Below are positions 10,532-16,000 of a DNA stretch of 64,000 nt, piece by piece (position 1 is the first letter of the stretch; each line of letters starts with the position of its first letter). The stretch spans positions 2,790,001-2,854,000 of the forward strand of contig NC_085851.1 in assembly GCF_020906515.1 (NCBI RefSeq). Reading direction: 5' to 3'. The notes under the pieces are model-generated. The model did no database searches. It was not told the DNA's origin and saw only the letters and a list, made by a program, of their open reading frames with translations. Both the position numbers and the translations under genes were made by a program. The DNA is from Vanrija pseudolonga. Its lineage: Eukaryota > Basidiomycota > Tremellomycetes > Trichosporonales > Trichosporonaceae.

Positions 10532-11768
10532 ATGCGCCCTCTGTCCAGAGCGTACGCATACACGGCCTCTAAACGACCCCTCTCAACCACCGCCCCGGCG
10601 CGCAGCCTCCTCCTCCTTCTCCGGCATCGCGCAATGTCGTCCTCGTCGACACACGAACACACGCTCTCACTCGTGCGGCGGCTCATCCCGCCCCTGTCGC
10701 ACAAGCTACACAAGGGCCAGGCTGGTGCGTGCGGCGTGCAGAGAGGGGGAAGGAAAGGGAGGCTGCTGACCCACCCCGCAGGCCGCATAGGCGTGCTCGG
10801 CGGTTCCGGGGACTACGCCGGCGCGCCGTACTTTGCCGCGATGGGCGCGATGCGCTTCGGCGCCGACTTGGCGCATGTGCTGTGCGAGCCTGGGGCCGGG
10901 GCCGTGATCAAGACGTAGTGGGTGGGGTGGAGCTGGCTCCTAGGCCTGGAACGAAGGAGACACAACTGACTCCTCATGCAGCTCCCCCGACCTCATCGTC
11001 CACGCGACGCTCGACGAGTCAAAAGGCATCTACGCCGCGCGCGCCGAGCTCAAGTCGGTGCTGGAGCGCCTGCACGTGCTCGTCATTGGGCCAGGGCTCG
11101 GCAGGAGCGAGTTCATGCAGAGCTGTGCGCGGGAGGCGCTCCGCCTCGCCAAGGACAGCACGCTGGGCGTCGTCGTCGACGCCGACGGGCTGTGGCTGCT
11201 CAACTCGGAGCCCGAGCTAGTGTCCGGCTGGAACGGGCAGCGCGTGATCCTCACGCCGAACGTGATGGAGTTTGGGCGCCTGTGCTCCGCGACTGGCATC
11301 GACGCCAAGGCAGAAGGCAGCTGTGCGGCGCTCGCGAAGAAGCTCGGCAACGTGACGATTATCCAGAAAGGCGCGAACGACGTCATCTCCAACGGCGCGG
11401 CGCTACCCGCCGTGTTTGGCGTGCAGGGCGACACGCTGGTGGAGAGCACGCAGGGCGGACTCAAGCGCGTAGGCGGGCAGGGGGATATCCTCTCCGGCTC
11501 TACGGGCACCCTGCTCGCCTGGGGACTGGAGTGGGCGCGCGGCGCATACGCCCACGTCGGGCATGCGCCCGACGAGCAGCTCACCCCGCACATCCCGCTG
11601 CTGGCGGCTTATGGCGCGAGCACCTTCAACCGCACGGTCTCTAGGCGCGGATGGGAGACGAAGAAGCGGGCCATGGTCACTAATGATTTGGTTGAGCTCG
11701 TTGGGCCGGTTTACGACGAGCTGTTTGGGCGATACCAGGAGGAGAAGGAGGAGAAGGGGAGGTTGTAG
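10532..11768 (+). CDS. ATP-dependent NAD(P)H-hydrate dehydratase
   Basis: Repairs hydrated NADH and NADPH using ATP (YjeF C-terminal/ribokinase-like fold, NAXD or CARKD family). Three exons (10532-10724, 10782-10917, 10982-11768) give 371 residues. Seen motifs: [20 protein letters not shown] near the start, [30 protein letters not shown] and the C-terminal nucleotide-binding loop [17 protein letters not shown]. The first ATG adds 34 Arg/Ser/Ala-rich residues that look like a mitochondrial presequence; a second in-frame ATG at 10634 would give a cytosolic form starting MSSSSTHEH. Family members are known to act in more than one compartment, so two products from leaky scanning are plausible. 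It converges on the UBL5-domain gene with 138 bp between stops. Confidence 0.94.
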
Positions 11769-11906: not shown

Positions 11907-12786
11907 CTAGTACATCTCGAGACTCTGGGCCGTCAGGACCACCCACCCACGGCACACTCACCATCCCATCGTTAATCTCATAGTCCTGCAGCGTGACGTG
12001 GTCCTTGAACATGGTATACCACTTCTTGAGCTGGATCTTCTGCGCCGACGTGCCCGTCTGCGCGGCGATCAGGCGCTTCAGGTCGCCCACCGTGTCGGTC
12101 GGGAGGCACTTGACGCGGACTTTACGTCCCATGCGGTCGTTGGCGATCACTTCGATCATGCGGCCGGGGCGGATGGTCGGGGGTGCGCTGGAGCCGGGGG
12201 CGGGCGGGCGCTGTGGCGGCTGGGCTGTAGACGCGGCTGATGGCCTCTCGCGGTCGCGGTCGTCGCGCCGGTGATCGCGGTCCCTGTCGCGGTGTTCGCG
12301 GTCGCGGTCTCTGTCCCTCCGATCGCGGTCGTCTCGATCCCTGTACCGATCCCGCTCACGCTCGCGGTCGCGGTCCTCTCTCCTGTACTCCCGGTCCTTG
12401 GGCTCGCCGCGCACGCCGAGCCGGTCCAGCGGGTCGCCGGTCCGCTTGAAGCTCCCCGGCGCCGAAGCGACGGGCACGACGACGTTGCCCATCGTATTCC
12501 GCACGCCCTGCTCGCGCGAGCCGCCAAAGCGGCGGGGCACCTCTCCGCGCTCGCGGCGCTGCGCGCGCTCCTTGGCCGTCTCCTCCTCCTCGACATACGC
12601 CGCGCCCGGCGCGCGCGGTGGCGGCGGGGCCGCGCCGCCCTTCTTGTAGAACGACAGCTCCTTCGCCTTGCGCTGCGACCACTGCTTTGGTGGCGGCGAG
12701 CGCGAGCGCGAGCGGTCGCGCCGCGGTTCGCGGGACGGCGAGGCCGAGCGCCGGCGTGATCTTTCTGGTGAGGGCGAGGCGGGCAT
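11907..12786 (-). CDS. RS/RD-rich protein with C-terminal UBL5/Hub1 domain
   Basis: A 280-residue protein in two exons (12786-11962 and 11924-11907). The last 75 or so residues are a full Hub1/UBL5 ubiquitin-like domain: [48 protein letters not shown] and, after a 37-nt intron, the end SLEMY followed by a stop, matching the family's usual end with two tyrosine-region residues and no GG. Hub1/UBL5 normally stands alone at about 73 residues, binds the spliceosomal proteins Snu66 or Prp38 through HIND elements and influences splice-site choice. Here about 200 residues precede it: an SR-like start ([17 protein letters not shown]), a middle with a [18 protein letters not shown] patch, and a long Arg-Asp/Arg-Glu dipeptide tract (about 12240-12390), typical of splicing factors. 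The reading frame is open throughout with no intron between the parts, so I read it as a real fusion. The domain-initial Met could also serve as an internal start; that would need transcript data. Confidence 0.88.
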
Positions 12787-13016
12787 AGTGGTGGGATGGA
12801 TGAGGAAAACAAAGAGTTGATCGAGTTTGAGCTCGTTTGACTTCGAAGTTGTTGGTGGCGATGTGGGGGGAGCGGATAAGTGGTGAGGAAGAGGCGGGCC
12901 CCCGCATTCCTCCTCCACCAGTCGACGAAGATCGCGTCCATCGCGTCGTATGTGATGATGATCATTTCCATTTCTCTTTCTACACTTCGGCACAACTCTT
13001 ATCCTTTCAAATCAGT

Positions 13017-16000
13017 ATGGAAGGCCTAGCGGTACATGGCGAGGGCTCTTCCTCGCGCGCGAGGCCACCCCGGCAGTCCCCTGCCAAGGCAGGCAGCAGC
13101 AAGGGCACCAAACGACAGCGCCCCTCGTCCCCCGCGCAGAAATATGACGAGGAGGAGGAAGACGCACCCCCCATCGAGCTGGATGAGGTGAGCTGACCAG
13201 GGGTAACACGTGTAGCTCACCCCAGCTATATGTCACCCTCCGCACCGACATCGTCGGTGTGCAGCACTACAGAGGCCTCGTCGGCAGAGGCGAGTATGTC
13301 CTCCTTAGACGGCAGCCGAACAACCCGTACGACAGCAACGCGGTGCAGGTGAGAAGGATAGGGTGTCGATGCTAGATATCCACTCACGTATCAGGTCATA
13401 AACGCCACCGGGCAGCAGGTCGGCCATGTGCCCCGCGCCGTGGCAGCCAAGATCGCGCCGCTCATGGACCACAATCTCATCGCAGTCGAGGGGCGGATGA
13501 TCGGGCAGAACCTCGACCGCGCGCTGCACTACAAGCTCAAGATGTGAGCTACACAAAACGCTTGCCGCAGCTGACAACCAGTGATATGCTCATCTACGCC
13601 CGACCGTCGCACCGGCGCTACCTCGAGCCCGAGCTCGAGTGGGCTACCCCTGGGCAGCTAGGCTTCGACCGCATGAGGCAGGCCGAGGCGGCACAGGCTG
13701 CCAAAGGGAAGGGCAAGGGCGATGGTGCTGGATTATCTGCACAGGAGGCTGAGTTGGGTAGACTCCTGAACAAGTTGACCGAGGTCAAGGAGGAGGAGAA
13801 GTTTGCGAACAACGTCATGGTGAGTGGGCCGTCCTCTCACGTATCACTCACTCTCCAGTCCGTTCTCACAGCCGACTTGGACGTCGCCAACCTCCCACCA
13901 CATCCATCACCGCCTTCCCTGGCCTCGGGTGACCTACTCGTTGACCTTCTGCCCCACCAGTCCCAAGCCCTGCAGTGGATGGTGGAGCATGAGAACCCCA
14001 TTCTCCCGAAGAAGGTCGGTGACGCCCCTGTCCAGTTCTGGGCGCGCCATGCACCGGAGGGAAAGACGCAAGAGTACTGGGTCAACATTGCCACCAAGAC
14101 GCCACAGGTCGACACGCCTACACTGGGACGTGGTGGTATCATCGCCGACGGAATGGGCCTAGGTCAGCTCAACTCTAGCTTGAAGAGGAAAGCTGACCCC
14201 CCCAGGCAAGACCCTCACCACTCTCGCGCTCGTGCTGGCGACAAGAAAAAGCAAGCCTGCGTCTGGGTTTTCCAATGCTACTCTCATTGGTGAGCTCACG
14301 AGTATTGGTGCTTGAACTCATGCTGCAGTTTGCCCCCTGTCCGTCCTTAGCAACTGGGAGAAGCAAATCGAGGACCACGTGGTAATCGGCAAGCTAAACT
14401 CGTACACGTATCACGGCGCAGGAAAGGGCATTGGAGCCACCGCCGTGTCACAGCATGACGTGAGCTCCTCCACCACCCACGGAGCTGACAGGCAGGTTGT
14501 CTTGACGACATACCAAACTCTTGCAGCCGAGATGCAGGTGCCTGCGGGGTCGAGCACGCCCACAGGCAAGAGTAAGAAGGCAAAGACAACGAGCACCTCG
14601 GGCCCCCTCATGAAGGTCAAGTGGAAACGTGTCGTGGCAGACGAGGGCCACGTTATGAAGAACCCGAAGGCGAAGAGTAGGTGTCGAGTTCGCAATACTC
14701 TCTCACCTGCCCAGTGACCCAGGCATTTGGTGACCTGCAAGCGGAGCGCCGCTGGGTCTGCACCGGCACTCCGATCGTCAACTCGGCTGCCGACCTCGGG
14801 ACCCTCCTAACGTGTCTCCGTCTCTGCGTGCCACTTGATGACCCACAGATCTTCAAGTCGCTCATTCTCCGCCCCATCAAAACGGGATTAGGCGAGGCCA
14901 GCCGCCTGCTGCAGGCAATTGTCGGCCAAGTCCTCCTCCGCCGCACGAAGGAGAGCAAGGACAGGAAGGGAAAGAAGCTCATTAACCTGCCAAAGATCGA
15001 GTACTACCAGTGCCCCGTCAAGCTCGACCCCGAGACGAGGAAGCTGTATGATGAGGTCCAGGTGGAGTCAGCAAAGCGTTTCCAGGAGAGCGTGGCGACT
15101 GGTGGGGTAGGTAACCTACACACGTCATGAGCTAACCTACCAGACCGGTGCCAATGTCCTGTCGATGTTGACCAGGAGTAAGTCGGATGTCAGGTTCGGT
15201 GAGAGTGTATCTGACGTCCCAGTGCGCCAGCTGTGTCTCTCTGCCGACATGATTCCAGCCGACTATCTCGAGACCCTCCGCAACATCGATACGTCACCTG
15301 CTGGTCCATCTGTTTCCATCTTGTCGCTCCAGCCGGAGCAGAAGGAGAAGCTGATAGAGAAGCTGCGTCAGGCGATTGCCGACCAAGAGGAGTGCTCGGT
15401 GAGCAGCTTGCGCGATATTCCCTAACCGCTTCAGGTTTGCTTCGATGTGCTTGATGACCCTCGGATCACAGACTGCGGCCATCCATGTCAGTTATATGAC
15501 TCGCTATGTATTACAACTGACCTCGCCCAGTCTGCTTGCTCTGCATCACAGAGGTTATCAATCGCCAAGCCCTGTGCCCCATGGACCGCCACCCTCTTGC
15601 TCTCAGCTCGCTTCTTGAACTCCCACCTGATGTCGACCCCAGCTCAGCGGAAGACAACGTCGTGAAGCCTCCAACGCGCTCAGCCAAGATCAGCGAGCTC
15701 GTTCGCTACCTCAAGGCATTCGATGCCAACGACAAGACTCTCGTCTTCTCCCAGTTCACGACCTTCCTCGACCGCGTCGCTGGTGTGCTCCAAGAGGAGG
15801 GCATCACGTTCTGCCGCTTTGACGGGACCATGCCAGCCAAGAAGGTGAGCTGCATTCGCTGAGAACCGAAGCTGACAAGTAGCGCCAGCAGGTCATCGCC
15901 CAGTTCCAGACCCCAGTGACGGACGACAACCGCGACAACAACCCCGTGGTTATGCTCATCTCGCTCAAGTCTGGCGCCGTGGGCCTCAACCTCACCGCCG

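What the first reader, a model, noticed from the sequence alone, without database searches (positions are those of the whole stretch)
11907..12786. Hub1/UBL5 ubiquitin-like domain fused to a long RS/RD-rich N-terminus
UBL5/Hub1 is one of the most conserved free-standing ubiquitin-like proteins, about 73 residues. Here the same open frame runs about 200 residues upstream as SR-like and Arg-Asp repeat sequence typical of splicing factors. A covalent link between a splicing modifier and an RS domain would anchor Hub1 at the spliceosome rather than let it bind through HIND elements.
Basis: partly seen in the sequence, partly recalled or inferred. Interest (0 to 1): 0.75.

Follow-up and report, generated by a model that had tools for sequence, protein, structure and literature searches.

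The report
Splicing factor Hub1 carries SR-like arm
In this yeast and its relatives (including Cryptococcus) the tiny splicing helper Hub1, a stand-alone protein in most organisms, appears to be built as the end of a longer protein with a floppy arginine-rich arm, which may change how the splicing machine holds the message being cut.

Summary
On the minus strand, 12786..11907 encodes a 280-aa protein: a 209-residue Arg-rich arm followed by a complete Hub1/UBL5 domain, with a 37-nt intron before the last five residues. It is identical to an annotated Vanrija pseudolonga protein and holds the only Hub1 domain found in this genome. The fusion is no local accident: 26 named Tremellomycete proteins (three orders) carry the arm, while Mrakia (same class) and other named Basidiomycota listed have short Hub1s, two Tephrocybe models apart. 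The arm is more than low-complexity sequence: it holds conserved motifs (KELSFYKK; [20 protein letters not shown]) matching no Pfam family or solved chain. In 26 of 45 readable junctions the old initiator Met is Phe or Leu, so no ATG start remains there. Best reading: a normal Hub1 that still docks on HIND and the MFAP1 5'-exon channel, with an SR-like/Arg-Asp arm added for local concentration or extra contacts. The arm's function is inferred. No description was found in the papers searched.

The parts
11907..12786 (-). Hub1 fusion gene, coding region with one intron, 280 aa
   Evidence: product identical to P0002 of Vanrija pseudolonga
11962..12786 (-). exon 1 (residues 1-275)
11925..11961 (-). 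37-nt intron, GTGAGT donor, CTGAC branch-like site, CAG acceptor
   Evidence: splicing gives the SLEMY end seen in relatives and equals P0002; no RNA evidence
11907..11924 (-). exon 2 (residues 276-280 SLEMY and stop)
12685..12786 (-). RS-rich N-terminus, residues 1-34
12637..12669 (-). conserved motif [11 protein letters not shown], residues 40-50
   Evidence: alignments A1, A2
12484..12579 (-). conserved core [32 protein letters not shown] region, residues 70-101; mean identity 84% to the 21 of 23 relatives aligned over it
   Evidence: no Pfam or PDB match
12409..12459 (-). conserved GSFKRxxDPLDRxGVRG motif, residues 110-126
12241..12399 (-). Arg-Asp/Glu mixed-charge stretch, residues 130-182 (24 R, 17 D, 6 E of 53)
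   Evidence: modelled as one long helix 131-177, block pLDDT 56-73
11962..12159 (-). Hub1/UBL5 ubiquitin-like domain, residues 210-275 (completed by exon 2)

Best explanation
This is the organism's Hub1/UBL5 gene, in which a 5' coding extension or gene fusion in the ancestor of Filobasidiales, Tremellales and Trichosporonales gave Hub1 a permanent disordered arm. Shown by sequence: one Hub1 gene, no separate copy found, a conserved arm, conserved HIND-, MFAP1- and exon-contact residues in Hub1, and loss of the internal start codon in many relatives. Inferred: the Hub1 domain still docks on the Snu66 HIND and then on MFAP1 beside U5 loop 1, forming the 5'-exon channel of the B complex. The RS segment (phosphorylatable), the conserved short motifs (docking sites) and the Arg-Asp mixed-charge stretch (condensate retention or weak RNA/protein contact) raise the local concentration of Hub1 at assembling spliceosomes and may steady the 5' exon at its channel. 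This would be an SR-protein-like activity in cis.
For: Single Hub1 in G000. 26 named Tremellomycete proteins with the arm. Core-profile search: each of the 25 hits named with an organism is a Tremellomycete Hub1 fusion, and of all 91 hits 28 carry Hub1 through the FKDH motif and 17 more its first part in one ORF. Domain Met replaced by F/L in 26 of 45 junctions. HIND kept. MFAP1 kept (the equivalent of human R358 was not checked). D22, N7 and K13 kept; in human B complex N7/K13 touch the exon and D22 touches MFAP1 R358 (PMC10943123, passages). GFP-Hub1 still reaches speckles in human cells (PMC4141198, passages), so a tagged Hub1 can localise. R/D mixed-charge domains were reported to accumulate in nuclear speckles (PMC9324279, abstract). 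Hub1 fold modelled at pLDDT about 97 and 0.6 A from 4pyu.
Against: No RNA or protein data for this gene. 46 of 91 core hits have no Hub1 in the same ORF; many look like metagenome exons cut at an intron, but their DNA was not read. In Vanrija the domain Met is still present, so an internal start cannot be excluded there. Models of Kockovaella imperatae (P0182), Tremella mesenterica (P0139, partial) and Naganishia friedmannii (P0030) begin at the domain Met. The 26 of 45 count includes close relatives and unspliced ORFs, so it counts sequences, not independent events. The same abstract says that an alternating R/D peptide did not phase-separate. The arm's function has no direct support; most of it is predicted disordered. 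Speckle data are human; speckles in this yeast are unknown.
Confidence: 0.55

Rival explanations
1. The arm is translated but is mostly a passive, tolerated extension: Hub1 works exactly as elsewhere, and the arm only adds a nuclear signal or solubility.
For: Most of the arm is predicted disordered; the Arg-Asp stretch and linker vary most (51% and 37% mean identity); Hub1 contact residues D22, N7 and K13 are unchanged.
Against: Residues 70-101 are 84% identical on average to 21 aligned relatives, more than a passive spacer needs.
Confidence: 0.25
2. Two products are made: a long form and a free Hub1 from internal initiation (or, in relatives, an alternative first exon at an intron before the domain).
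For: The domain Met is kept in 19 of 45 junctions including Vanrija, and 16 of the 26 others have a Met within 8 residues upstream. Several relatives appear to have an intron just before the domain (ORFs; DNA not read).
Against: The domain Met has a weak context here (C at -3, A at +4; Kozak rule recalled), and three ATGs from 12786 on precede it. Ten of the 45 have neither domain Met nor a Met within 8 residues; the nearest lies 24-126 residues upstream. One of these ten, P0015, has a Met at domain residue 2, and P0045 may include intron sequence.
Confidence: 0.13
3. The fusion is an annotation or assembly artefact joining two neighbouring genes.
For: Such artefacts probably exist: the Tephrocybe and Trichobilharzia proteins P0031, P0032 and P0037 look like neighbours run together.
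Against: Here the frame is continuous through the junction with no intron, and separately sequenced genera show the same junction.
Confidence: 0.03
4. The arm folds back as a pseudo-HIND and regulates Hub1 in cis.
For: EETAKER in the core loosely resembles EETNKVR of HIND, with K and R at the same spacing.
Against: The hydrophobic LGLKP part is missing. Two cores (Vanrija, Cryptococcus) matched no Pfam family, HIND included, at E up to 10 (with HMMER filters on). The model gives a short helix at 71-79, but contacts with Hub1 were not measured.
Confidence: 0.04

Closest known systems
Hub1/UBL5 (human, S. cerevisiae, S. pombe)
   Same: Same ubiquitin-like domain, D22, N7, K13, no C-terminal Gly-Gly, partner HIND present in Snu66
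   Different: Known proteins are about 73 residues, a few with several extra N-terminal residues (PMC8431670, figure legend passage); here 209 residues precede the domain
SR-related proteins and Arg-rich mixed-charge domains
   Same: RS dipeptides near the N-terminus; an Arg-Asp stretch
   Different: No RRM; short RS segment; a ubiquitin-like fold instead; conserved core motifs of its own
Ubiquitin-fold splicing precursors such as Sde2 (recalled; title and start of abstract of PMC9508853 seen)
   Same: A ubiquitin-like fold within a larger splicing protein
   Different: In Sde2 the fold is N-terminal and is cut off (recalled); here it is C-terminal without a Gly-Gly processing site
Prp38 with C-terminal RS tail
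   Same: A neighbour of UBL5 in the human B complex (PMC6274647, passages); this genome's Prp38 also shows an RS tail
   Different: Unrelated fold; tail is C-terminal

Membership tests
Hub1/UBL5 | Ubiquitin-like domain closest to UBL5/Hub1 | tested here: met
Hub1/UBL5 | No C-terminal di-glycine; ends in a tyrosine motif | tested here: met
   ends SLEMY (one Tyr, not two)
Hub1/UBL5 | D22 for the HIND salt bridge | tested here: met
   role from PMC4141198 (passages)
Hub1/UBL5 | Partner protein with HIND in the genome | tested here: met
   N-terminus of Snu66
Hub1/UBL5 | Stand-alone protein of about 73 residues | tested here: not met
   280-aa product predicted, first ATG at 12786; length is typical rather than definitional
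Hub1/UBL5 | Non-covalent binding to spliceosomes | not testable with these tools
   needs biochemistry
SR protein | RNA recognition motif | tested here: not met
   no RRM in Pfam scans
SR protein | Long RS-dipeptide domain | tested here: inconclusive
   5 RS and 5 SR dipeptides against 14 RD and 16 DR in the arm
Arg-rich mixed-charge domain | Arg-enriched stretch of interspersed Arg and Asp | tested here: met
   24 R, 17 D, 6 E of 53 residues; no formal charge-pattern score was computed
Arg-rich mixed-charge domain | Accumulates in nuclear speckles | not testable with these tools
   needs imaging

The most novel reading that the evidence does not exclude
A whole fungal lineage, including the intron-rich Cryptococcus group, has turned Hub1 from a small loosely bound modifier into a built-in arm-bearing splicing factor. 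The arm's conserved core is a new spliceosome-docking element that acts at the 5'-exon channel and lets Hub1 remain on more, or other, introns than free Hub1 does.
Probability: 0.3. Interest if true: 0.75.

Novelty: new variant of a known kind. Interest (0 to 1): 0.58.

Why it matters
Hub1 is among the most conserved small splicing proteins and is thought to act by brief non-covalent contacts. A lineage that made its only detected Hub1 part of an SR-like protein is a natural tethering experiment at the 5'-exon channel. It offers a direct test of whether Hub1 dosage and localisation control splice-site choice, in fungi whose genes carry many introns (recalled). The conserved core is an unassigned motif likely to have a spliceosomal partner.

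Tried and rejected
Gene-model artefact: rejected, because the frame is continuous and the junction recurs in other genera. Second free Hub1: none found in G000 (six frames, E up to 0.001, assembly completeness not given). HIND lost: rejected; the second, sub-threshold HIND hit (L003, 16.6 bits, cut-off 25) lies in an open frame with hydrophobic stretches and was dropped. HIND on Prp38: no hit there, and the translated tail shows RS repeats instead. Arm as a relocated known protein: no Pfam family on the arm, no PDB hit (E up to 1), SNRNP27 encoded elsewhere. Arm docking on Hub1: the first AlphaFold run was poor (mean pLDDT 51); the second modelled only the Hub1 domain well.

Literature: ten searches, nine on Hub1/UBL5 or the Cryptococcus spliceosome and one on mixed-charge domains. 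One search found no paper; one search listed 20 of 75 and one search listed 8 of 70. None of the listed titles or abstract openings describes this architecture. I saw passages of PMC10943123, PMC6274647, PMC5364666, PMC4141198, PMC2408969 and PMC8431670, and abstract with outline of PMC9324279. Many subscription papers are not held. A first reading of minus-strand loci used the wrong strand for L002, L003 and L010 and was redone.

Full report
What is there. The minus strand at 12786..11907 encodes a 280-residue protein in two exons. The spliced product is identical to P0002, annotated as Ubiquitin-like protein 5 of Vanrija pseudolonga, a Trichosporonales yeast in Tremellomycetes. Residues 210-280 are Hub1/UBL5, modelled at pLDDT about 97 and 0.6 A from human Hub1 4pyu. 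Residues 1-209 form an Arg-rich arm: RS-rich start, conserved core, Arg-Asp stretch, Pro-rich linker.

Only copy found. A six-frame search of the whole genome (24.87 Mb, 9 contigs) with the Hub1 domain gave one place, this one. The assembly's completeness is not given.

Conservation. A search with the Hub1 part, admitting proteins of 154-490 residues, gave 54 hits. Of the first 30, 29 carry at least part of the arm and one (P0030, Naganishia friedmannii) starts at the domain Met; P0007 (Papiliotrema) has a different, RS-poor start before the core. Counting names, 26 named Tremellomycete proteins have the arm, from Vanrija, Apiotrichum, Cutaneotrichosporon, Trichosporon, Cryptococcus, Kwoniella, Papiliotrema, Naematelia and Naganishia. 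Orders were looked up for Vanrija, Naganishia and Papiliotrema and are recalled for the rest. I did not read the sequences of P0040 and P0046-P0054. The only named Basidiomycota of this length outside Tremellomycetes are two Tephrocybe models joined to a membrane protein, which look like merged genes.

Short Hub1 proteins. A search that by design returns only 39-124 residues gave 204 hits, 120 listed. It lists many Basidiomycota outside Tremellomycetes (their class recalled), the longest read from the list being 122 residues. Three named Tremellomycetes appear: Mrakia frigida (76 aa, P0120; Cystofilobasidiales), Tremella mesenterica (partial, P0139) and Kockovaella imperatae (P0182; Tremellales). 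P0093, a metagenome ORF with the same IANSRTGQK stretch as Tremella P0139, has the arm joined to it, so the Tremella model is probably truncated. The simplest history, inferred, is a fusion after Cystofilobasidiales split off.

The arm has its own signature. Compared with the window's protein in alignment A3 (23 relatives; rows covering 60% or less of a segment dropped), mean identity is 84% for residues 70-101 (21 rows; lowest 27%, probably a reduced Filobasidiales form), 76% for 40-50 (21), 67% for 110-126 (23), 73% for the RS start (13), 51% for the Arg-Asp stretch (21), 37% for the linker (21) and 92% for Hub1 (23). A profile of the core found 91 proteins, with only the 7995 best candidates scored. 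Each of the 25 named with an organism is a Tremellomycete Hub1 fusion. In the same ORF, 28 of 91 reach the FKDH motif of Hub1, 17 hold only its first part and 46 hold none. Many of the 46 end in the same linker sequence, as expected of gene calls cut at an intron, but their DNA was not read. The core matches no Pfam family and no PDB chain.

Start codon test. I gave 46 proteins to a script; 45 had a readable junction (P0030 has none; P0087, a near twin of P0086, was left out). At the ancestral initiator position 19 have Met and 26 have Phe or Leu. Of the 26, 16 have another Met within 8 residues upstream and 10 have none; in these ten the nearest lies 24 to 126 residues away, although P0015 has a Met at domain residue 2. 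Some of the 45 are close relatives or unspliced ORFs, so these are sequences, not events. Many relatives therefore have no ATG at the old start. Vanrija keeps the Met, in a weak context.

HIND and the spliceosome. Snu66 of this genome begins MSVNQETLTLEETNKVRISLGLKPI, a canonical HIND above the Pfam cut-off. MFAP1 and Prp38 are present. Hub1 keeps D22, N7 and K13; of 11 positions checked, N19 and K29 differ (L and R). In human B complex UBL5 and MFAP1 form the 5'-exon channel; N7 and K13 touch the exon and D22 touches MFAP1 R358 (PMC10943123, passages). An earlier structure paper placed UBL5 on the Snu66 HIND instead (PMC6274647, passages); PMC10943123 calls an Snu66 helix there misplaced. Human Hub1 M1 contacts HIND (PMC4141198, passages), which fits the M/F/L restriction seen here. 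HIND binding is thus probably kept.

Function. The arm's role is inferred. Arg-Asp mixed-charge domains were reported to accumulate in human nuclear speckles, although an alternating peptide alone did not phase-separate (PMC9324279, abstract). GFP-Hub1 in human cells still reaches speckles, even with D22A (PMC4141198, passages), so a joined partner is tolerable. I favour a model in which the arm raises local Hub1 concentration and adds contacts next to the 5' exon, with the conserved core as a docking element of unknown partner.

Novelty. The 2021 review notes only a few extra N-terminal residues in some species (PMC8431670, passages). None of the listed titles or abstract openings describes this fusion (one search found no paper). 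The long proteins already sit in public databases as 'ubiquitin-like protein 5' or HUB1, so the sequence is known but the architecture seems unremarked.

Noticed in passing
window 12831-14717 (+): Divergent neighbour gene with HIRAN (39 bits) and SNF2 (65 bits) matches in separate open frames, perhaps an HLTF/Rad5-like helicase (likeness recalled).
   Followed up: partly
window 10944-11768 (+): Convergent neighbour: NAD(P)H-hydrate dehydratase, Carb_kinase 111 bits.
   Followed up: partly
P0036 (eukprot transcript) and P0039 (ena): Two Hub1 proteins with Lys-rich, partly RS-rich N-terminal arms that do not resemble the Tremellomycete arm by eye, possibly independent fusions in other eukaryotes.
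   Followed up: no
G000:C1 2574325-2574975, loci L006-L009: Prp38 of this genome shows a C-terminal RS tail and no visible HIND.
   Followed up: partly
P0029 and P0006: Trichosporon asahii and Vanrija humicola Hub1 models appear to read through introns; their public annotation is probably wrong.
   Followed up: no
P0031, P0032, P0037: Annotated Hub1 fusions to a membrane protein (Tephrocybe) and a deacylase-like protein (Trichobilharzia) that look like merged gene models.
   Followed up: no
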